A DNA stretch of 64,000 bases from Candidatus Zymogenaceae bacterium (GCA_016931225.1 JAFGFE010000014.1:1-64000); one strand, 5' to 3'; counted from the first letter of the stretch, positions 17,224-28,781 are shown. Notes: a model not told the origin generated them from the letters alone. Numbers and translations are program-made.

Positions 17224-17394
17224 TTATCCTTTCGATGTGTCTTTCGCTGTTTCGGAACACTCTTTTGGCATGGTGCACCCGCATCCGCATCCGGCGCAGC
17301 CGTCGTTATCACCCTTCATCGTTCGATACAACGATCGTATCCCGAAAAGCAGTGCGCCGAAAACAATGACACTTACAATAATTGTTTCCATCAT
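17224..17394 (-). CDS. FeoB-associated Cys-rich membrane protein
   Basis: A 56-residue protein, missed by a length cut-off. One N-terminal membrane helix (IIVSVIVFGALLFGI) is followed by a basic turn and a Cys-rich tail (CAGCGCGC, then MPKEC). This layout matches the FeoB-associated Cys-rich protein family, usually found next to feoB, which probably serves as a partner of the ferrous iron channel in the way FeoC does. GGAGA lies five bases before the first of two adjacent ATG codons. It begins 10 bases after the feoB stop, so it is the last gene of the feo operon. Confidence 0.85.
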   Translation of the reverse strand: MMETIIVSVIVFGALLFGIRSLYRTMKGDNDGCAGCGCGCTMPKECSETAKDTSKG

Positions 17395-17403
17395 ATATCT
17401 CTC

Positions 17404-19548
17404 CTATCCCGTGCCGATGCCGAGGAGGCTCCCGACCTGGTAGACCAGTACCGTCAGCACCCACGCAAGGGCCGTCAGCGCGAAGAGCTGGAAGAGCGCC
17501 CATTTCCAGGAGTTGCTCTCTCTCTTGGTGATGGCGATGGTCGCCATGCACGGCGCGCTGATGAGGCAGAACAGCATGATGCAGAAGCCGATCAGCGGAT
17601 TGTAGTTTGCCTGTAGTTTTTCACGAAGGCTTTCGGACTCCTCGTCCGCCTCTCCCACCGAATAGACGATTCCCATTTGGGCCACGAAGACCTCCTTGGC
17701 GGCGAAGGCGCCGATGAGGGCCGTGCCGATCTTCCAGTCGAATCCCATCGGTTTCAGGATGGGCTCCAGCCCGTGGCCGATACGGCCCGCGATGCTGTAT
17801 GTCAGCGCCGCTTCCCCCTCCTCGTTGTCGATGGTCGCGATAATCTCCTCTTTTTCCTCGTCGGAGACGTCAAGGGCTTCGATATTGACCCTTTCGGCCT
17901 CGAAGCGGGCCGTCTCATCCTCGGGGAGCCCCGGGTAGGCGATCATCGCCCATAGGACGATCGAGATGACCAGGATGATGGTGCCGGCCTTTTTCAGGTA
18001 CAGCCAGCATCTCTCCCACATATGGATCAAAACGCCCTTGATGGTGGGCATCCGATACGGCGGCAGCTCCATCACGAACGGTGCGGTCTCCCCCTTGAAA
18101 AGGGTGCTCCGCAGTACCTTCGCGGCGATGATGGCCAGCACGATGCCGATGATGTAGATGATCCAGAGCATCGGGGCGTGAAAGGCCTGGGGGAAGAAGG
18201 CGGGGATGATGAGCGCGTAGATCGGCAGCCGCGCACCGCAGCTCATCAGCGGCACCACGAGCATCGTGGTGAGGCGGTCCCGCTCGTTCTCGATGGTCCT
18301 GGTCGCCATGATCGCCGGTATCGAACACCCGAACCCTATCAGCATGGGGATGAAGCTCTTGCCGTGCAGGCCGATCTTGTTCATCAATCGATCCATGATG
18401 AACGCCGCCCTGGCCATGTAGCCGGTGTCTTCCAGAAAGGCGATGGCAATGAATAACAGCAGGATGTTCGGTGTAAAGATCAGGACGCCGCCGACGCCCG
18501 CGATGATGCCGTCCACCAGAAGGGATTTCAGGGCGCTCTCGGAGCCCGCCGGCCACCAGCCGGACACCGTAACGCCGAGCCAGCCGACGAACTGGTCGAG
18601 CCAGTCCATGAACGGGGCGCCCAGTGTAAAGGTGAGTTGAAAGACCAGGTACATCAGCCCCAGGAAGATGGGGATCCCGAGGATGCGGTTGACAACGACC
18701 GTGTCTATCTTATCCGATATGGTATGGCGGATTTCGATGGTCGAGCGGACGGACTCCTGGCACGCCCCGGAGATGTATCCGTATCTGCTCCCGGCAATGG
18801 CGGTCTCGGGATGCTCGCCGATGATCTTCTCGATGCGCTCGGCGCTCCTGTCGAGCTGGTCGTTGACTTTTGGTGAGTCGATCATGGATACAATGTCCTT
18901 GTCGTTTTCCAAAAGCTTCGTGGCCAGCCATCGGGGGTCATACTCCTCGGGGTACGCGCCGTTTTTACCGAGTAAGGATGTGATGTGCGTGATTTCCTCC
19001 TCGATCTCACGGCCGTAGTCGAGGGTAAACGGTTCTCTCACTTTTGTGCCGACATCGGCCGTCGCCACAATGGCCTCAAGCAGCTCCTTCATCCCTCTCC
19101 CCTTGTGCCCCACGGTCGAGACAATGGGCGCACCGAGGAATGTGGAGAGTTTTTCGGTGTCGATGGCAAATCCGCGCGCCCCCGCCTGATCGCTCATGTT
19201 GAAGGCGAGAACCAGGGGTACTCCCAGCTCCATGAGCTGTATCGTCAGGTACAGGTTTCGCTCAAGGTTCGACGAGTCGATGATGTCGACGATGACATCC
19301 GGCCTTTCATGAATTATAAAGCGGCGCGCCACCAGCTCATCGGCGGAATATGCGGTCAGGCTGTATGTGCCGGGCAGGTCGATGAATTTGATTTCGACAC
19401 CGTTGTGCCGACAGGTCCCCTCCTTGCTTTCCACCGTGACGCCGGGGTAATTGCCGACGTGCTGGCGGGCGCCGGTCAGATTGTTGAATATGGTTGTCTT
19501 GCCCGAGTTGGGATTTCCCACAAGGGCGACGGTGAGTGTTTGTTTCAT
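17404..19548 (-). CDS. feoB: ferrous iron transporter FeoB (first copy)
   Basis: A 714-residue inner-membrane Fe(II) transporter. The N-terminal G domain carries G1 GNPNSGKT (about 10-17), G3 [12 protein letters not shown] and G4 NMSD. The helical NFeoB region follows, then the membrane part with the two Gate repeats (GCSIPAIMATRT and SCGARLPIYALI) and the C-terminal SAPCMATIAI segment. Conserved pore-region Cys residues are present. I chose ATG 19548 because GAGAGGAAAACC precedes it; the frame is open 48 bases further up. A TTAG-N6-CTAA operator lies 54 bases upstream. It is followed by the Cys-rich partner and preceded by feoA. Confidence 0.95.
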   Translation of the reverse strand: MKQTLTVALVGNPNSGKTTIFNNLTGARQHVGNYPGVTVESKEGTCRHNGVEIKFIDLPGTYSLTAYSADELVARRFIIHERPDVIVDIIDSSNLERNLYLTIQLMELGVPLVLAFNMSDQAGARGFAIDTEKLSTFLGAPIVSTVGHKGRGMKELLEAIVATADVGTKVREPFTLDYGREIEEEITHITSLLGKNGAYPEEYDPRWLATKLLENDKDIVSMIDSPKVNDQLDRSAERIEKIIGEHPETAIAGSRYGYISGACQESVRSTIEIRHTISDKIDTVVVNRILGIPIFLGLMYLVFQLTFTLGAPFMDWLDQFVGWLGVTVSGWWPAGSESALKSLLVDGIIAGVGGVLIFTPNILLLFIAIAFLEDTGYMARAAFIMDRLMNKIGLHGKSFIPMLIGFGCSIPAIMATRTIENERDRLTTMLVVPLMSCGARLPIYALIIPAFFPQAFHAPMLWIIYIIGIVLAIIAAKVLRSTLFKGETAPFVMELPPYRMPTIKGVLIHMWERCWLYLKKAGTIILVISIVLWAMIAYPGLPEDETARFEAERVNIEALDVSDEEKEEIIATIDNEEGEAALTYSIAGRIGHGLEPILKPMGFDWKIGTALIGAFAAKEVFVAQMGIVYSVGEADEESESLREKLQANYNPLIGFCIMLFCLISAPCMATIAITKRESNSWKWALFQLFALTALAWVLTVLVYQVGSLLGIGTG

Positions 19549-19601
19549 GGTTTTCCTCTCCCCTCTTTTGCAATATGTGAATTTTAGGCGGGTCAATAAA
19601 A

Positions 19602-19617
19602 TTTAGGCATGACTAAA
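19602..19617. promoter_or_regulatory. DtxR-type operator upstream of feoB (site A)
   Basis: TTTAG-GCATGA-CTAAA, with perfect arms. A weaker half copy (TTTAGGCGGGTCAATAA) lies about 20 bases nearer feoB. It matches three other sites in this window (20658, 25379, 26245). Confidence 0.7.
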
Positions 19618-19634
19618 GTTATCCCCAAAAAAAA

Positions 19635-19892
19635 TCATTCCGCCATGATTTTTTCGGCCATACCCCTGCCCAGCACGATTCGGCATCCGCAGAGCGCGAC
19701 GATAACCGGCCCCCGTTGGGCGTTTTGAAGCACCTCGATGCTTACGCCCGTTACCAGGCCCATGGCGCACAGCCTCCCGGTGAGCCCGTGACCCGCCGTG
19801 ATAGACACAATCCGCGCCATCGCACCGGTTTCCACCTCGGTCAGGGGCACAGGAAGTGCGTGTTCAATGACAGATGTGCTATATCTTCTCAA
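19635..19892 (-). CDS. feoA: FeoA domain protein, TTG start
   Basis: An 85-residue SH3-like FeoA protein (MARIVSITAGHGLTGRLCAM, GVSIEVLQNAQRGPVIVALC, IVLGRGMAEKI) that should act with FeoB at the membrane. The start is not an ATG: TTG 19892 follows GGAGG by nine bases and lies inside the last codons of the DtxR-FeoA fusion, overlapping it by 14 bases, which implies translational coupling. The longer frame upstream is out-of-frame sequence of the fusion gene. It is the second FeoA domain encoded in this operon. Confidence 0.85.
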   Translation of the reverse strand: MRRYSTSVIEHALPVPLTEVETGAMARIVSITAGHGLTGRLCAMGLVTGVSIEVLQNAQRGPVIVALCGCRIVLGRGMAEKIMAE

Positions 19893-20112
19893 CTTCGATT
19901 CCCTCCGCTTCGTCCTTGCGTAAGGAAAGATGATATCCCCTGACCTTGATTTCGACGGGATCTCCCAGGGGCGCCACCCGCTCGACCTCGAGCACCGCGC
20001 CGGGCGTGACGCCCATTTCAGCGATGCGCTTGTGTGTCTCCCCCCGGGTGGCGATTTTGACAACCTTGCATTTCTGTCCCGGTTCCAAATCCTTCAACCG
20101 TACATCCTTCAT
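19879..20112 (-). other. possible internal start giving a free FeoA domain
   Basis: In-frame ATG 20112 begins MKDVRLKDLEPGQK, the normal start of a FeoA protein. GGAGG (20123-20127) lies 10 bases upstream, within the fusion gene. A 77-residue FeoA could therefore be made in addition to the fusion. Confidence 0.4.
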
Positions 20113-20634
20113 GGCATTGTTACCTCCTTTTGCCTTTTGTTCTTTTACTTCCTTAAGAGTATATTCAATACAATCGTCGCAGTTGTCCTGGACTCTTCCG
20201 TAGTCGCACTGATATCCGAATCCGGCGATCCACTTGGAGCCGGCCCTTGGACAGACCTCTATGAAGTCGGCGAACTGGATGAACCGCTCGAGGATAACCC
20301 TGGGAATGGAGTGCTCCATCCGGCAGGCGGCGTCATCGGCTGTCGCCTCGTCCACAGAAAGGACCTTCACAAAAAAATCCCGCAGCACTTCGTGGCGTCG
20401 GACCACATCCTTGGCGGCTGTCCTTCCCCGGTCGGTCAGTGTGATGACATCGTATGGGGCGTAGTGTATCAGTTTCTTTTCCGTCAGGGTACGAAGGGCC
20501 CCGGTCACCGAGGCGTTGCTGACTTTCAGCCGCTTGGCGATGTCTTTCGGCCTCACCGCCTGCTTTTCGTTGATGACGTGGAAAATCACCTCGAGGTAAT
20601 CTTCCATGCTGGCTGAGAGAGATTCAGTCTGCAT
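19879..20634 (-). CDS. DtxR-family iron repressor fused to a FeoA domain
   Basis: A 251-residue protein. The winged helix (1-65) has VSNASVTGALRTL as the likely recognition region. The dimerisation domain carries the DtxR metal-ligand pattern: Met10, His81 and C104-R-M-E107-H108. A Cys cluster follows (C128, C143, C152, C155). Residues 175-251 form a complete FeoA (SH3-like) domain. DtxR proteins with C-terminal SH3 domains are known; here the tail is a full FeoA-like unit next to feoA and feoB. ATG 20634 was chosen with AGGTG upstream. It is autoregulated, to judge from the operator abutting its own -10 box. Confidence 0.9.
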   Translation of the reverse strand: MQTESLSASMEDYLEVIFHVINEKQAVRPKDIAKRLKVSNASVTGALRTLTEKKLIHYAPYDVITLTDRGRTAAKDVVRRHEVLRDFFVKVLSVDEATADDAACRMEHSIPRVILERFIQFADFIEVCPRAGSKWIAGFGYQCDYGRVQDNCDDCIEYTLKEVKEQKAKGGNNAMKDVRLKDLEPGQKCKVVKIATRGETHKRIAEMGVTPGAVLEVERVAPLGDPVEIKVRGYHLSLRKDEAEGIEVEKI

Positions 20635-20657
20635 ATCGAGAAGCACCTTTCAGAAAG

Positions 20658-20702
20658 TTTAGGGAAGGCTAAAATAATATGTTATAACGAACATCATGTC
20701 AA
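20658..20702 (-). promoter_or_regulatory. promoter and operator of the DtxR-FeoA/feo operon (site B)
   Basis: On the minus strand TTGACA (20697-20702), a 17-base spacer and TATTAT (20674-20679). The palindrome TTTAG-CCTTCC-CTAAA on that strand (20658-20673) touches the -10 box and covers the start site. This is a classic repressor layout. Confidence 0.8.
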
Positions 20703-20896
20703 GTCTTTTTTTCAAAGGGTGCTTTTGTGTGATGGATCATTCAAATGACGCCCCGGGGCTGTTTCTGTCTGAGAAGAGAAGAGGCGGCCGGACGATGGAC
20801 TCGTTCGAGGAATTTAGTGTCCGGCACATGAACCCGTGGTGTATTGATGGAGTATGTGAAGAGGATACCCTATTGTGTGTTGTGTGCTGAAATCGT

Positions 20897-20941
20897 TTGA
20901 CATGGGTCTGTTCGCGTAATAAAATACCGAAATTATTCGGT
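20897..20941 (+). promoter_or_regulatory. promoter and palindrome before the DUF1007/NicO operon
   Basis: TTGACA (20897-20902), a 17-base spacer and TAAAAT (20920-20925). The perfect inverted repeat ACCGAA-ATTA-TTCGGT (20926-20941) follows directly, over the expected start site. It is a likely metal-regulator operator and differs from the DtxR-type sites. Confidence 0.7.
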
Positions 20942-20955
20942 TTGTCGGTTTTTTG

Positions 20956-21555
20956 ATGAAGAAGAAGCTTCTCTCTCTCTTGGCGGCGTTTCTTTTTTGT
21001 GTCCATGCGGGTCCGGTGCTGTCTCACCCTCATGTGTTCATTGACGCGGAACTGGTTTTCGTGTTTGACGATGGGGGACTTGTGGGGATCAGAGAACGGT
21101 GGGTGTTTGACGAGATGTTTAGTCAGGGACTCCTGAGCGATTTCGGCGCGGAGGACGGCCGCCTGACGAATGAGACCGTCGTGCTTTTGCGGGATATCTT
21201 TTATGAAAATACCAGGGACTATAATTATTACAACATCTTGACAATAGACGGACAGGAGCACACCATCGAATCTCTGCGGGACTTCTCCGTATACACCGAG
21301 GACTACCGGATCGTCTACGAGTTCTTCGTGCCGTGCCGGGTTGCGGCGCCTCCAAGCGGCGAGAAGCGGGTGCAGGTGTTGTTGTTCGACGAAACGATTT
21401 ATACACATCTTACCATTGCCGAATATCGGATGGAGACCCAGAGTAATCACGATGCCCTTGTGGTTGATCTGAAATATGAGATGCACGATGAGGTTATTAC
21501 TCCCCTGGGGTCACTTGTCCCGGATTCGGTGGTCGCCGCGTTTCGAAAAAAATGA
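20956..21555 (+). CDS. DUF1007 family periplasmic protein
   Basis: A 199-residue protein with a cleavable signal peptide (about 1-23), then at the mature N terminus the motif HPHVFIDAEL, typical of DUF1007. The His pair near the mature N terminus and the Asp/Glu-rich body suggest metal binding. DUF1007 genes usually lie beside NicO-type nickel/cobalt or zinc-linked transporters, and here a NicO gene overlaps the stop by four bases. ATG 20956 is preferred over the TTG just before it; no Shine-Dalgarno site is obvious, and the leader after the promoter is short (about 25 bases). Confidence 0.8.
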   Translation: MKKKLLSLLAAFLFCVHAGPVLSHPHVFIDAELVFVFDDGGLVGIRERWVFDEMFSQGLLSDFGAEDGRLTNETVVLLRDIFYENTRDYNYYNILTIDGQEHTIESLRDFSVYTEDYRIVYEFFVPCRVAAPPSGEKRVQVLLFDETIYTHLTIAEYRMETQSNHDALVVDLKYEMHDEVITPLGSLVPDSVVAAFRKK

Positions 21556-22472
21556 AGCGATTAATTTGTATCGGTATCGTATGCGTGTTCTTTCTTCTGC
21601 CTCCCTGTATTGCACCGGCGCAGAATCCGTTCCTGGACCGGGGCGGGGACGATACAGAGGTCGAGGAGCCTGAAACGAACATCTCGCCGCCCCCCTTCCT
21701 TCAAAAGGTTCCATCTCGAATTGCACTTTGGCAGAAACACCTCAGAGACAGGATGGCGACCGTCGGCAGGGCTGTCCGGGATCATCCCTTCGGGTCGTCC
21801 TTCTGGTTTTTTCTGGCGATGTCTTTCGCATACGGCGTCATTCATGCCGTGGGCCCCGGACACGGGAAAACGATAGTTGCGTCCTATTTCCTGAACCGTC
21901 ACGGGACGCTGCGTGACGGAATCCTGATGTCCTCCCTCATCGCCCTCTTTCATGTCGGATCTGCGACGGCGATTATAATGGGTCTGTACGCGGTCTTTAA
22001 AACCACGGGTATGTCTTCCTTCGAACAGGCAAGCCCGGTACTCCAGCGCGTGAGCTTCGCCCTGTTGTTTCTTGTCGGGGTGTTTCTTTTTTCAAAGACG
22101 ATCTATGAGCTTGTGAACGGCGGGGAGAGGTCCGCCGACCATACACAGAATGCGCCCGTGAAGGGGGGAGTTGTCGTCACCGCGCTGGCCACGGGGATGG
22201 TGCCCTGTCCCGGCGCGGCCATTATTCTCTCTTTTGCGATTATCATCGGGATACCCGGTACCGGACTTATCTCGATGCTGTGTGTCGCCCTGGGAATGGG
22301 GCTGACCGTCTCCTGTGCGGCGGTCGCCACAATTCTCTCCCGCAAAGCCATGTTCCATGTCGTCGGGCGCAACCGCAAGGCGTTTTTGTGGACATACGGT
22401 ATCGTTTCGATTACAGGATCGATCCTCCTGATGTCGTTGAGTGGATTGATGTTTCTGTATCACCTGGGATAG
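21552..22472 (+). CDS. NicO-family nickel/cobalt transporter
   Basis: A 306-residue membrane protein. A signal-like N terminus (to about 24) and a Pro-rich linker precede about six hydrophobic segments. The motif YGVIHAVGPGHGKT (about 95-108) is the family signature; its His residues are implicated in metal passage. The later TGMVPCPGAAIIL matches the second conserved block. Members such as RcnA export Ni/Co, while others import, and the direction cannot be told here. The start ATG overlaps the DUF1007 stop (ATGA), so the pair is one operon behind the palindromic promoter at 20897. Confidence 0.85.
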   Translation: MKRLICIGIVCVFFLLPPCIAPAQNPFLDRGGDDTEVEEPETNISPPPFLQKVPSRIALWQKHLRDRMATVGRAVRDHPFGSSFWFFLAMSFAYGVIHAVGPGHGKTIVASYFLNRHGTLRDGILMSSLIALFHVGSATAIIMGLYAVFKTTGMSSFEQASPVLQRVSFALLFLVGVFLFSKTIYELVNGGERSADHTQNAPVKGGVVVTALATGMVPCPGAAIILSFAIIIGIPGTGLISMLCVALGMGLTVSCAAVATILSRKAMFHVVGRNRKAFLWTYGIVSITGSILLMSLSGLMFLYHLG

Positions 22473-22511
22473 AGGGCGCTGCGCCCGGGAAAACCGGCTT
22501 GGAAAAGCGAA

Positions 22512-22537
22512 GGGGGATGCGTCGCCACACATCCCCC
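22512..22537. terminator. candidate bidirectional hairpin between nicO and lon
   Basis: A perfect 8-bp stem GGGGGATG/CATCCCCC lies between the two convergent genes. No strong T run follows on either strand, so termination activity is uncertain. Confidence 0.4.
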
Positions 22538-22575
22538 AAAATAATCTATCGTCGTGTAATCTGTAGTCTTTAATA

Positions 22576-25083
<2,508 letters not shown>

Positions 25084-25273
25084 ATTTATTTCTCCTTTAT
25101 CCGCATCACATCGCCCCGGCAATCCCCGAGACCGTCTCGCAAAGCGTTCTTCATTCCCGGAAATCAGAGGTGATTGATATAACGGCTGTATCTCTTTCTC
25201 GTTTTTGATATTATTGCATCGAGGTCCGTCGATGGCTCCCATCGGCGGCGCTCGATTTACAGGCGCACAGATA

Positions 25274-25305
25274 ATGTAATCATCCCCGGGTGCATTTCAA
25301 GGGGG
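25274..25305 (-). promoter_or_regulatory. possible heat-shock-like promoter of lon
   Basis: On the minus strand CCCCCTTGAAA (25295-25305) resembles the sigma32 -35 element; TACATT lies about 15 bases downstream (25274-25279). The -10 part is a poor sigma32 match. The leader to the lon start would be about 190 bases. Confidence 0.3.
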
Positions 25306-25365
25306 CGTGCTGTTTTTTCACGGGTTTTTCCCGATTCGGTCGTGTGGTTTTTTTCGTGATTTCAC

Positions 25366-25395
25366 TTGACAAAAAAGATTAGGTATGGCTAACAT
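25366..25395 (+). promoter_or_regulatory. promoter with DtxR-type operator before the Fur-FeoA gene (site C)
   Basis: TTGACA (25366-25371) and TAACAT (25390-25395) are 18 bases apart. The palindrome TTAG-GTATGG-CTAA (25379-25392) fills the spacer, a repressing position. TATACT at 25395-25400 is an alternative -10 with a longer spacer. Confidence 0.7.
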
Positions 25396-25511
25396 ATACT
25401 CAGAGACTCTTTTAAAGAAATTATCCTCTCATGACCGCCCCGTTCTTCACCACGTTGATGAGTGTGGATCGGTACGGGTTGGTGTACAGACGGCGGCGAA
25501 GGGAAAAAGAT

Positions 25512-26225
25512 ATGCCCCGAAATTTTTCAGAAGGGTCGAGAAAGGGTAGACAGAAGATTTTTGAGGAATTCAAGGCCATTTTCGCCGAGGACGGCGGAGG
25601 GGACGTCGAAGAACGCCTGAGGCTGCTCTCCCTTTTTCTGGAGAACGGATCTCACCTGACCATGGACGGGCTGGAAAAGCTGGTACGGGAGAACGGCTGG
25701 GACTTGGAACCGGAGACCCTTCAATCCTACATCGCGACCTTTATCAACTACGGTATCATTCACCGGATACGTCTCGACGGCGGGAAGGTGCTCTATGAAT
25801 ACCGGGACCTGAACACGCACCACGACCATATGGTGTGTGTCAAGTGCGGCAGGATACAGGAGTTCACCGATCCCCGGATAGAGGCCCTTCAGGAGAGAAA
25901 CGCTCACTTCCGCGGATTTATCCCCCTGCGGCACAATATGACCCTGTATGGGCTGTGTCCGAAATGCAGCGGGGAGCGGGAGCGGGTCATGCCGCTGTCT
26001 CTGGTGTCCGAGGGTGAAATCGTCCGCATCACCGATATCGGCGGCGGTCGAAGAATCCGCCAGCGACTGGTCTCCATGGGGCTGGTGCCTGGCAAGGACC
26101 TGGAGGTCATCAGGACACCGGGGCCCGGCCCGGCGGTGGTGGCGGTGGACGGCAGCCGTATCGCCCTGGGTCAGGTTCTTTCCCGGAAGGTCCTGGTCTC
26201 CACCAATGGGACCGAGGAGACATAA
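25512..26225 (+). CDS. Fur-family regulator fused to a FeoA domain
   Basis: A 237-residue protein. Residues about 12-95 form a Fur-like winged helix. The dimerisation part carries HHDHMVCVKCGRIQEF (His103-104, His106, Cys109, Cys112), and the second CxxC pair C149-PK-C152 completes the Zn site. Residues 159-232 are a FeoA domain (MPLSLVSEGEIVRITDIGGG, RRIRQRLVSMGLVPG). I start at ATG 25512; the open frame to 25431 has no site and an Arg-rich leader. It lies upstream of a second feoB and behind a DtxR-type site. This mirrors the DtxR-FeoA fusion of the first feo cluster with a different DNA-binding family. Confidence 0.88.
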   Translation: MPRNFSEGSRKGRQKIFEEFKAIFAEDGGGDVEERLRLLSLFLENGSHLTMDGLEKLVRENGWDLEPETLQSYIATFINYGIIHRIRLDGGKVLYEYRDLNTHHDHMVCVKCGRIQEFTDPRIEALQERNAHFRGFIPLRHNMTLYGLCPKCSGERERVMPLSLVSEGEIVRITDIGGGRRIRQRLVSMGLVPGKDLEVIRTPGPGPAVVAVDGSRIALGQVLSRKVLVSTNGTEET

Positions 26226-26244
26226 AAAATTTTTGCTCCAATAA

Positions 26245-26258
26245 TTAGGCGTGACTAA
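26245..26258. promoter_or_regulatory. DtxR-type operator upstream of the second feoB (site D)
   Basis: TTAG-GCGTGA-CTAA lies 20 bases after the Fur-FeoA stop and 130 bases before the feoB start, so feoB can be controlled apart from the regulator. A clear -10/-35 pair was not found around it. Confidence 0.65.
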
Positions 26259-26387
26259 CTTCCGTATCGATGGTACAAACGTACGGGGGTCGGTACACGT
26301 GTATCGTTCGGGGGACGGCCGATACCGTATCGGCCTCACAGCGCACGAAAAGAACACCCTCAATGACATAATCGCAAAAAGCCTCTC

Positions 26388-28781
26388 ATGAAGAAAAAAA
26401 TCACCGTCGCCGTGGCGGGCAATCCGAACAGCGGCAAGACCACCGTCTTTAACGCTCTCACCGGCTCCCGCTATAAGGTAGGAAACTACCCCGGCGTGAC
26501 CGTGGAGAAAAAACAGGGGACCGTCGAGACGGACGGAATTGTCATTACCGTGGTGGACCTGCCGGGGACATACAGCCTGACGGCCTATTCACTGGAGGAG
26601 GTGGTGGCCCGGGATTTCATCGTCACGGAAAAGCCGGACCTGGTGGTGGATATTGTCGACGCCTCGAACCTGTCCCGCAACCTCTATCTGACCGCCCAGC
26701 TCATGGAGCTGGGCGCGCCCCTGGTGGTGTGTTTGAATATGATGGATCTCGCCGAGGCGCGGGGCATAGAGATCGACGCCGATCGGCTCTCGGCGCTTTT
26801 GGGGGTGCCGGTGGTGCAGACCGTGGGCACCAAGCGGCGGGGGATGGATGAGCTTCTCGATGTCATCGTCAGAAGCGCCCTGGCGGGCGGGGCCGTCACG
26901 CCTTCGGAAATCAGGTACGGGGAGGAGATTGAAAAGGAGATCGCCCGTCTGTCTGAGGAAGTATCCGCCGATCTTTCAGACGATCCTCCTCAGCTTTCCC
27001 GATGGCATGCGGTCAAGCTTCTGGAGCGGGATACCGAGGTGGAGGCGAGGTTCGCCGCAGGAGAAAACTGGGGAAACATCCGCTCACTCCTCGACGAGGG
27101 GACGGACCGGCTTCGCTCCATCCTGAAGGAGGACCCGACCAACCTGATCGCCGAGGGGCGCTACGGCTTCATTAACGGTGTCGTCAGGGATAGCGTCGTG
27201 CATGTCCGGGAGGATCACATCCGCATGTCGGACACCATCGACCGGGTGGTGTTGAGCGGCATGCTGGGCCTGCCGATTTTCGTGGGCGTGATGTATCTGG
27301 TCTTCCAGGCGGTCTTCACCTGGGCGGAGCCGCTGATGAATCTGGTCGAGGAAATTTTCTTTTTTCTGGGGGGCTTTGCCGCCGCCGTTATCCCGGCGGG
27401 GCTCGTTCAGGACCTGGTGGTGGACGGGATCATCGCCGGTGTGGGCGGGGTGCTGACGTTCCTTCCCCAGATAATGTTTCTATTTCTTTTCATCGCCATA
27501 CTGGAGGACTCCGGCTACCTCGCACGGGCTGCGTTCATCATGGATCGGGTGATGAGCGCCTTCGGATTGAACGGGAAGGCATTTGTGCCGTTGTTGTCGT
27601 CGTTCGCGTGTGCGGTGCCGGGGATCATGGCCACCAGGACCATGGAGTCGGACAAGAGCCGGCTGGTGACCATGCTGATCGCCCCCCTGATGTCCTGTTC
27701 CGCCCGGCTCCCGGTCTATACCCTGATGATCGCAGCGTTGGTTCCTGATACAAAAATCTTCGGGGGCACCGTGGGCGCCCAAGGATTCACCCTCTTTTCC
27801 CTCTATTTCGGCGGCGTGATCATGGCGATGCTCATGGCAATCCTCTTCAAGACGACCATCCTCAAGGAGGAATCGGCGCCCCTGGTCATCGAGCTTCCCC
27901 CCTATCGCCTTCCCACCGTCAGGAGCGTGACGCTTCACATGTGGGACAAGTCCCGGGAGTATGTGAAAAAGGCGGGGACGGTGATCCTTGCGGTGTCGAT
28001 CGTGCTCTGGGTGCTGTTCAGCTTTCCGCGGATAGACGAGGGTCTTGAGGGTCCCTCCCCCACGGATCCCCTGGCCGTGGCGTTCTTTGAGGAGACCGGC
28101 ATCCATCCCGAGGCCTTCGAGACGGGAGGGGAGTTGGAAGGCGTATACGCACCCTACCGGGCATACGACGACGCCGTCTCCAAAATAGCGGAGAAACGGG
28201 AAGACACCGCCGGGGACGGGGCGACCTGTCTTGCCGATGAGACGATCCTCACAAGTCACCTCGCCTCCGTGAAGGCAAGGGATCCGGAGCTCTATCGGGC
28301 GTTGATTGAATACCGCGAGGAATATCTCCCGGCCCGCTGGGAACTGGAGCGGGAGCGGGAGCGTGAGCAGATGATCGAGAGCTTTGGGGGAAGGCTCGGA
28401 CGCGCCATTGAGCCGGTATTTCGCCCCCTGGGTCTGGATTGGCGGTTCAGTATATCGCTGGTGTCGTCCTTTGCCGCCAAGGAGATATTCGTGGCGGCGA
28501 TGGGAACCCTCTATGCGGTGGGAGGCGACTCGGCTGAGGGGAGCCCGAACCTGATTCAGTCCATTCGCACCGACCCGATGTTTGAAGGCAACACCGGGGT
28601 CCTGTTGGCGGTGGTGATCATGGTATTTTCCCTCCTTTCCACGCCGTGTCTCGCCACGGTGGCGGTGGTCAAGCAGGAGTCGGGCACCTGGCGGTGGCCG
28701 CTGTTTTTGATCGGCTATACCTTCGCCCTGGCCTGGATCGTCTGTTTTCTCATCTGGCAGACGGGACGGCTCTTCCTGTAG
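26388..28781 (+). CDS. feoB: ferrous iron transporter FeoB (second copy, long form)
   Basis: A 797-residue Fe(II) transporter. G1 GNPNSGKT is at 11-18, G3 [12 protein letters not shown] and G4 NMMD follow, then the Gate repeats ([24 protein letters not shown]) and [10 protein letters not shown] at the C terminus. It is about 80 residues longer than the first FeoB. The extra length lies in one charged soluble loop of over 100 residues, after the segment [11 protein letters not shown], with Asp/Glu/Arg-rich helices. No Shine-Dalgarno site is clear before ATG. It follows the Fur-FeoA gene and has its own DtxR-type site. No Cys-rich partner gene follows it. Confidence 0.95.

What the first reader, a model, noticed from the sequence alone, without database searches (positions are those of the whole stretch)
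17224..28781. Two feo clusters, each led by a different metal regulator fused to a FeoA domain
Cluster 1 encodes a DtxR-FeoA fusion, cluster 2 a Fur-FeoA fusion, each followed by its own feoB. FeoA is thought to act with FeoB at the membrane. A DNA-binding regulator that carries FeoA could sense FeoB state or iron and report straight to the promoter. Having two unrelated DNA-binding families that have each gained the same partner domain, side by side, points to a convergent design that may not have been described as a system.
Basis: partly seen in the sequence, partly recalled or inferred. Interest (0 to 1): 0.8.

Follow-up and report, generated by a model that had tools for sequence, protein, structure and literature searches.

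The report
Iron-uptake subunits fused to two regulators
In this anaerobic bacterium two iron-sensing proteins, DtxR and Fur, are each fused to a different version of FeoA, a helper of the iron importer FeoB; the DtxR fusion looks like the switch for both iron-uptake clusters, while the Fur fusion seems to have lost its DNA-reading residues and may act on the importer itself.

Summary
In detail: window 17404-20646 (-) encodes DtxR-FeoA, a stand-alone FeoA and FeoB1; 25431-28781 (+) encodes Fur-FeoA and FeoB2. Both tails are real FeoA. The 'same partner, two regulators' reading needs changing. (1) The fused FeoAs are two different paralogues: all 38 DtxR-fused copies in the tree are class I, all 67 Fur-fused are class II (100/100 support; AU p 7e-7). 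(2) Both clusters look like one DtxR regulon: TTAG-N6-CTAA occurs only 8 times in 3.7 Mb, four of them upstream of dtxR-feoA, feoB1, fur-feoA and feoB2. (3) Fur-FeoA keeps Fur's metal ligands but lost the Tyr-Arg of the recognition helix (0/68 and 1/68; 23/23 in neighbouring Fur) and has no Fur box: probably an iron-sensing FeoA subunit, not a promoter-binding regulator. (4) dtxR-feoA carries an in-frame Shine-Dalgarno and ATG exactly at the domain junction, predicted to make free FeoA too; 22 of 49 homologues have it, mostly where no other free class-I FeoA exists. (5) The two fusions co-occur at chance level (8 of 395 genomes, 6.5 expected). DtxR-FeoA is a known kind; Fur-FeoA, the complementary pairing and the internal start were not found described. 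Nothing was tested at the bench.

The parts
17404..19548 (-). feoB1, Fe(II) transporter (ATG 19548 with Shine-Dalgarno chosen over the listed TTG 19596)
   Evidence: TIGR00437 632 bits; FeoB_N, Gate, FeoB_C
19603..19616 (-). DtxR-type box TTAGTCATGCCTAA upstream of feoB1
   Evidence: one of 8 in the genome; same position in relative G002
19635..19892 (-). stand-alone feoA, class II; likely TTG start 19892 overlapping the end of dtxR-feoA, with Shine-Dalgarno GGAGGG
   Evidence: FeoA 4.6e-17; class from trees; start read from sequence
19879..20634 (-). dtxR-feoA: DtxR/MntR-type repressor with Cys-rich linker and class-I FeoA domain (ATG 20634; listed ORF starts GTG 20646)
   Evidence: Pfam; ligands D16, E19, H85, C108, E111, H112 in the 255-aa ORF; model m06d283d29b97
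20122..20130 (-). internal Shine-Dalgarno AAAGGAGGT at the DtxR/FeoA junction
   Evidence: -12.9 kcal/mol with anti-SD, synonymous-codon p 0.007
19879..20112 (-). predicted second product: free class-I FeoA, 77 aa, from in-frame ATG 20112
   Evidence: inference, not tested
20659..20672 (-). DtxR-type box TTAGCCTTCCCTAA, just downstream of the dtxR-feoA -10 hexamer
20674..20702 (-). sigma-70-like promoter of dtxR-feoA, TTGACA-17-TATTAT
   Evidence: 11 of 12 matches
25366..25395 (+). sigma-70-like promoter of fur-feoA, TTGACA-18-TAACAT
   Evidence: 10 of 12 matches
25379..25392 (+). DtxR-type box TTAGGTATGGCTAA inside the fur-feoA promoter
   Evidence: conserved in G002 and G003
25512..26225 (+). 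fur-feoA: Fur with intact metal ligands and lost Tyr-Arg, short linker, class-II FeoA (likely ATG 25512; listed ORF starts 25431)
   Evidence: Pfam; model mbc5af85db3ad
26245..26258 (+). DtxR-type box TTAGGCGTGACTAA between fur-feoA and feoB2
   Evidence: conserved in G002 and G003
26388..28781 (+). feoB2, Fe(II) transporter
   Evidence: TIGR00437 594 bits; FeoB_N, Gate, FeoB_C

Best explanation
One iron-uptake regulon with a division of labour between two fusions. DtxR-FeoA is an iron/manganese-responsive repressor of the DtxR/MntR family. It represses its own operon, feoB1, fur-feoA and feoB2 through TTAG-N6-CTAA boxes. Its gene also holds an internal ribosome binding site, so it yields two products: the fused repressor and a free class-I FeoA that serves FeoB. 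Fur-FeoA is a Fur that kept metal binding and dimerisation but gave up reading DNA. It carries the other FeoA paralogue (class II) and most likely works as an iron-responsive FeoA subunit of FeoB2: when cell Fe(II) is high, metal binding by the Fur part changes how its FeoA contacts FeoB and turns uptake down quickly, beneath slower transcriptional control. Shown by sequence: the fusions, the two FeoA classes, the boxes and their rarity, the loss of Tyr-Arg, the kept ligands, the internal Shine-Dalgarno and ATG. Inferred: DtxR-FeoA as the protein that binds the boxes, translation of the free FeoA, and action of Fur-FeoA on FeoB.
For: Boxes: upstream of 18/38 dtxR-feoA (0.85 expected) and 11/33 of their feoB (0.4 expected); 8 in the whole genome, 4 upstream of the feo genes here; same four places in G002; shape fits the published DtxR consensus (PMC7762939). 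FeoA classes: 100/100 split, p-AU 7e-7. Fur-FeoA: Tyr 0/68, Arg 1/68 against 23/23; acidic recognition helix, p 1.7e-12; no Fur box (1/68, 1.55 expected); metal ligands nearly invariant. Triple fusions Fur-FeoA-FeoA next to feoB in three families. Internal start: 18/39 with energy -8.7 kcal/mol or better, synonymous-codon p 2.8e-4; associated with absence of any other free class-I FeoA, 14/18 against 4/21, p 3.6e-4, with 10 later genes p 1.8e-4. G002 has only fused FeoAs; G007 has only the DtxR-fused one.
Against: No experiment. A second DtxR without FeoA (L219) could bind the same boxes; in G002 and G003 the dtxR-only gene has a box, and G003 (88% complete) shows boxes but no DtxR-FeoA. The internal start is absent in 21 of 39 homologues, 4 of them without another free class-I FeoA; tree-aware pairs agree in direction but are too few to be significant; the 10 later genes alone are not significant (p 0.5). 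33 of 68 Fur-FeoA genes are not near feoB, so action on FeoB would be in trans there. Fur-FeoA could read DNA in another way.
Confidence: 0.5

Rival explanations
1. One reading: each fusion is a DNA-binding regulator of its own cluster, and FeoA lets it sense FeoB or iron at the membrane and report to its promoter.
For: Both are fusions of regulator-family domains to FeoA next to feoB. DtxR-FeoA has an intact DNA-binding domain and boxes at its own promoter.
Against: Fur-FeoA lacks the Tyr-Arg of Fur recognition helices and a Fur box; boxes at cluster 2 are of DtxR type. Many loci encode a separate fur with intact Tyr-Arg and its own Fur box.
Confidence: 0.15
2. Fur-FeoA still binds DNA, at an operator not recognised here, by a changed recognition helix.
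For: The winged-helix fold is kept in the model and Fur-fold matches are good; hydrophobic positions of the helix are kept.
Against: The helix is acidic and weakly conserved (0.46 against 0.66 for the metal part), and no conserved dyad stands before fur-feoA genes.
Confidence: 0.2
3. Fur-FeoA acts by forming inactive heterodimers with a canonical Fur, as was proposed for a Desulfovibrio Fur without DNA-binding domain (PMC545781).
For: A second fur with intact Tyr-Arg and a Fur box lies next to many Fur-FeoA genes.
Against: In the window's genome this query found only a Zur-like (L220) and a PerR-like (L221) protein besides Fur-FeoA; the idea does not explain why FeoA is attached.
Confidence: 0.07
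4. The internal Shine-Dalgarno in dtxR-feoA is a relic of a former separate feoA joined by loss of a stop codon, without function today.
For: Unfused dtxR followed in the same frame by feoA exists (L207, L224). The Lys-Gly-Gly residues of the linker favour Shine-Dalgarno-like codons by themselves (null means near -9).
Against: The site is stronger than synonymous codons predict (p 2.8e-4), is kept in another codon phase in L179, and is found mostly where no other free class-I FeoA exists.
Confidence: 0.3

Closest known systems
PgMntR of Porphyromonas gingivalis, DtxR family with two C-terminal FeoA domains (PMC4805248)
   Same: DtxR-type DNA-binding and dimerisation domains with FeoA at the C-terminus; Asp/Cys/Glu/His metal site; loss of the last FeoA abolished metal and DNA binding there
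   Different: Window protein has one FeoA, a Cys-rich linker, an internal start, and boxes at Fe(II) transporter genes; PgMntR bound the Mn transporter FB2 promoter, not that of FB1
FeoAB fusion of Bacteroides fragilis (PMC8980893)
   Same: FeoA covalently joined to another part of the Feo machinery; FeoA contacts and stabilises GTP-bound FeoB
   Different: There FeoA is joined to FeoB itself, here to metal sensors; that survey set FeoA-like domains on DtxR proteins aside
Delta-proteobacterial FUR regulon with feoA-feoA-feoB operons and delta-type Fur box (PMC545781)
   Same: Iron regulon of the same broad group; tandem feoA genes; neighbouring fur genes of Fur-FeoA loci carry boxes of that shape
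   Different: No fused regulators described there in the passages read; the window has DtxR-type boxes instead of Fur boxes
DtxR/IdeR repressors (consensus TTAGGTTAGCCTAACCTAA; PMC7762939)
   Same: Same family by domains; box TTAG-N6-CTAA is contained in the consensus; repression by covering the promoter
   Different: Third domain is FeoA proper rather than the DtxR SH3 domain by sequence
FeoC, a small regulator of FeoB stability (PMC10710835)
   Same: Nearest functional parallel to the proposed role of Fur-FeoA: a cytoplasmic partner that adjusts FeoB at the protein level
   Different: No homology tested or claimed; FeoC senses through an Fe-S cluster, Fur-FeoA would sense through the Fur metal site

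Membership tests
DtxR/MntR family (DtxR-FeoA) | N-terminal winged-helix DNA-binding domain and metal-binding dimerisation domain | tested here: met
   Fe_dep_repress 6.5e-15, Fe_dep_repr_C 3.1e-19; MntR/IdeR/DtxR structures match
DtxR/MntR family (DtxR-FeoA) | metal ligands of the MntR/DtxR site | tested here: met
   Asp, Glu, His, Cys, Glu, His conserved in most of 39 homologues, PgMntR-like combination
DtxR/MntR family (DtxR-FeoA) | DtxR-type operator at own and iron-transport promoters | tested here: met
   TTAG-N6-CTAA; binding itself not tested
DtxR/MntR family (DtxR-FeoA) | metal-dependent DNA binding | not testable with these tools
   needs EMSA or footprinting
three-domain DtxR/IdeR with SH3 domain | C-terminal DtxR SH3 domain | tested here: not met
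   profile aligns DtxR/IdeR chains only to about residue 140; tail aligns to FeoA
FeoA | PF04023 domain over its whole length | tested here: met
   79, 65 and 62 bits, cut-off 23
FeoA | interaction with FeoB | not testable with these tools
   only gene neighbourhood and Fur-FeoA-FeoA fusions next to feoB speak for it
Fur family (Fur-FeoA) | Fur fold with HHDH site and structural CxxC pairs | tested here: met
   FUR 1.4e-20; H, D, H and four Cys invariant in 68; 5nhk, 2xig and others match the model
Fur family (Fur-FeoA) | Tyr-Arg of the DNA-recognition helix | tested here: not met
   Tyr 0/68, Arg 1/68; 23/23 in neighbouring Fur
Fur family (Fur-FeoA) | Fur box at own or target promoter | tested here: not met
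   1/68 at 13 of 16 matches, 1.55 expected; none in the window
FeoB | G-protein, cytosolic helical, gate and C-terminal domains | tested here: met
   both copies

The most novel reading that the evidence does not exclude
Fur-FeoA is a transcription factor that left DNA and became an iron-sensing subunit of a membrane transporter, giving FeoB direct feedback by cytoplasmic Fe(II), while the dtxR-feoA gene supplies both the repressor and, through an internal start, the second FeoA that FeoB needs.
Probability: 0.35. Interest if true: 0.8.

Novelty: new variant of a known kind. Interest (0 to 1): 0.58.

Why it matters
What FeoA does for FeoB is an open question (PMC8749426, PMC8980893). Here two FeoA paralogues are each tied to a different metal sensor, and in one relative (G002) every FeoA domain is fused to a sensor. 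That makes it testable whether FeoA is the point where cytoplasmic iron feeds back on FeoB, whether the two FeoA classes do different jobs, and how a DNA-binding metal sensor can turn into a transporter subunit. Cultured sulfate reducers that carry Fur-FeoA (Desulfatibacillum alkenivorans, Desulfoluna spongiiphila) make bench work possible.

Tried and rejected
Tail is a DtxR SH3 domain: rejected by PDB profile search. One shared origin of the fused FeoAs: rejected. Co-occurrence of the fusions: chance level. Internal start in Fur-FeoA: not above background. Fur box in the window: none. A conserved dyad upstream of Fur-FeoA genes in general: none of strength; the ATTG-N11-CAAT signal belongs to neighbouring fur genes and has the shape of a Fur box. 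Plasmid collection: only partial matches, none covering 80% of the query. Papers: no Fur-FeoA protein fusion found; hits for 'Fur-feoA' concern Fur bound to feoA operators. The D. alkenivorans record is not in the annotated collections. Scripts had errors and were redone.

Full report
WHAT IS THERE. The window is contig C14 of a 3.73 Mb genome, 99% complete. The nearest named relative of the Fur-FeoA gene is a Candidatus Zymogenus MAG (JAUWME010000115.1); its contig has the same length as that of G003, a genome of the same family as the window's, so the organism belongs near Zymogenus in the Desulfobacterota (inference). Cluster 1 runs leftwards: dtxR-feoA (ORF 20646-19879), a stand-alone feoA (about 19892-19635) and feoB1 (19548-17404). 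Cluster 2 runs rightwards: fur-feoA (25431 or 25512 to 26225) and feoB2 (26388-28781). A DUF1007-NicO pair and lon lie between. These are the only three FeoA domains of the genome.

THE TAILS ARE FEOA. With a profile of 39 DtxR-FeoA proteins the tail matches solved FeoA proteins (2k5l 1.4e-21; 7r7b, the FeoA part of a FeoAB fusion, 2.6e-18), while DtxR and IdeR chains align only over about the first 140 residues. The Fur-FeoA profile matches Fur over positions 19-159 and FeoA (3e19, 9.1e-18) over 160-232. AlphaFold models have mean pLDDT 86.7 and 89.4 and match DtxR/MntR and Fur structures. Whole-chain alignments of the DtxR-FeoA model to three-domain DtxR proteins have rmsd of about 14-15 A, so the domains are arranged differently or their arrangement is not predicted well.

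HOW COMMON. In 395 genomes drawn from the phylum, Fur-FeoA was found in 68 and DtxR-FeoA in 38; both in 8, where 6.5 are expected (Fisher p 0.5). They lie near each other only in the window and in G031 (L168). 35 of 68 Fur-FeoA stretches hold a feoB, usually as fur-feoA, feoA, feoB, often with a second fur in front; 33 have no feoB within about 4 kb. The best 80 loci of a named genome scan are almost all labelled Desulfobacterota or Deltaproteobacteria, a few only Proteobacteria; other phyla were not searched further.

TWO FEOA PARALOGUES, COMPLEMENTARY FUSIONS. A tree of 176 FeoA domains separates class I from class II (SH-aLRT 98); a careful tree of 76 gives 100/100. All 38 DtxR-fused FeoAs in the tree and all 31 further FeoAs in Fur-FeoA loci are class I; all 67 Fur-fused FeoAs and 30 of 40 stand-alone FeoAs of the other loci are class II. 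Holding DtxR-fused and Fur-fused FeoA together is rejected (p-AU 7e-7). Class I has the APLGD and YH-x-SLR-x-x-EA signature; class II has G-x-GP and R-x-ALG-x-G-x-A-x-KI. The ancestral unit was probably a two-FeoA operon, known in this group as feoA-feoA-feoB (PMC545781), and each sensor joined a different one of the two (inference).

ONE REGULON. TTAG-N6-CTAA was noticed in the window and then tested. It lies upstream of 18 of 38 dtxR-feoA genes (0.85 expected) and of 11 of 33 feoB genes of such loci (0.4 expected), but of only 4 of 68 fur-feoA genes, three of them in the window's own family. In the window's whole genome it occurs 8 times (65 for the reversed control), four times here: 19603 (feoB1), 20659 (dtxR-feoA), 25379 (fur-feoA), 26245 (feoB2). 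The others are a tandem pair before a porin-like gene (no Pfam match; porin is my reading of the sequence), one at the start of an ArsP_1 permease and one before an ATC_hydrolase-like gene. In relative G002 all four feo places are conserved, in G003 those of fur-feoA and feoB2. The box falls inside the predicted fur-feoA promoter and next to the dtxR-feoA -10 hexamer, as expected for repression. The published DtxR consensus TTAGGTTAGCCTAACCTAA begins with TTAG-N6-CTAA (PMC7762939). DtxR-FeoA has the Asp/Cys/Glu/His site of PgMntR, described as having iron and manganese elements (PMC4805248). A second DtxR without FeoA exists (L219). In the window's genome it has no box at its own promoter, but in G002 and G003 the dtxR-only gene has one, so which DtxR binds is not settled.

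FUR-FEOA HAS PROBABLY LEFT DNA. All 23 neighbouring stand-alone Fur-family proteins have Tyr-Arg in the recognition helix; Fur-FeoA has Tyr in 0 and Arg in 1 of 68, and the window has Gln-Ser. The helix is acidic (median net charge -1 against +1, p 1.7e-12) and less conserved (0.46) than the metal/dimer part (0.66) or the FeoA part (0.56). Metal-site residues are nearly invariant. Fur boxes stand before neighbouring fur genes (9 of 26, 0.45 expected) but not before fur-feoA (1 of 68, 1.55 expected). Three loci encode Fur-FeoA-FeoA triple fusions carrying class II then class I, next to feoB (L111, L133, L164). The simplest reading is an iron sensor attached to the FeoA/FeoB complex. Binding to FeoB is inference.

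AN INTERNAL START IN dtxR-feoA. The linker of the window's gene contains AAAGGAGGT nine bases before an in-frame ATG (20112) that starts the FeoA domain. Of 39 homologues, 18 have a start codon there with a Shine-Dalgarno energy of -8.7 kcal/mol or better; the next best is -3.3 (the threshold was set after seeing this gap). With the protein fixed and codons drawn synonymously, the combined p is 2.8e-4. In L179 the Shine-Dalgarno is kept in another codon phase with other residues. Fur-FeoA shows nothing of the kind (10 of 68, background rate). A census of FeoA shows that 14 of 18 genes with the internal start lie in genomes without another free class-I FeoA, against 4 of 21 without it (p 3.6e-4). 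Ten further genes sampled afterwards go the same way in 7 of 10, not significant alone; combined p 1.8e-4. Tree-aware pairs agree in direction (about 3.4 to 0.1) but are too few for significance, and the trait changes about 9 times on the tree. In G002, 99% complete, the only FeoA domains are the two fused ones; in G007 the only one is the DtxR-fused one with the internal start. The prediction is two products from one gene.

VERDICT. DtxR proteins with FeoA are known (PMC4805248; also noted and set aside in PMC8980893). I found no description of Fur-FeoA, of the complementary pairing or of the internal start in the open library searched; most subscription papers are not in it.

Noticed in passing
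window 20153-20250 (-), DtxR-FeoA linker: Conserved Cys-rich stretch after the dimerisation domain (Cys 132, 147, 156, 159 of the 255-aa ORF; CPR..W motif), conserved in 26-37 of 39 homologues; possible Fe-S or zinc site, not identified.
   Followed up: partly
window 20953-22472 (+): DUF1007 and NicO-family (nickel/cobalt transporter) gene pair between the two feo clusters, with its own strong sigma-70-like promoter at 20897-20925.
   Followed up: no
window 22576-25242 (-): lon protease gene lies between the two feo clusters; Lon degrades FeoC in Salmonella (PMC10710835), any link here is speculation.
   Followed up: no
L229 3401-3433, L230 3259-3272, L228 3099-3112: Remaining genome sites of the DtxR-type box: tandem pair before a porin-like gene, one at the start of an ArsP_1 permease with a convergent ZIP transporter, one before an ATC_hydrolase-like gene.
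   Followed up: partly
L111, L133, L164: Fur-FeoA-FeoA triple fusions (class II then class I) next to feoB in three different families.
   Followed up: partly
L151, L153, L155, L156, L159, L165, L166, L170, L172: Fur-FeoA genes divergent from a stand-alone fur (HHCH in place of HHDH) with a shared Fur-box-like dyad, without feoB within about 4 kb; role unclear.
   Followed up: no
L207, L224: Unfused dtxR followed in the same frame by feoA, separated by one stop codon: likely intermediates of the fusion.
   Followed up: no
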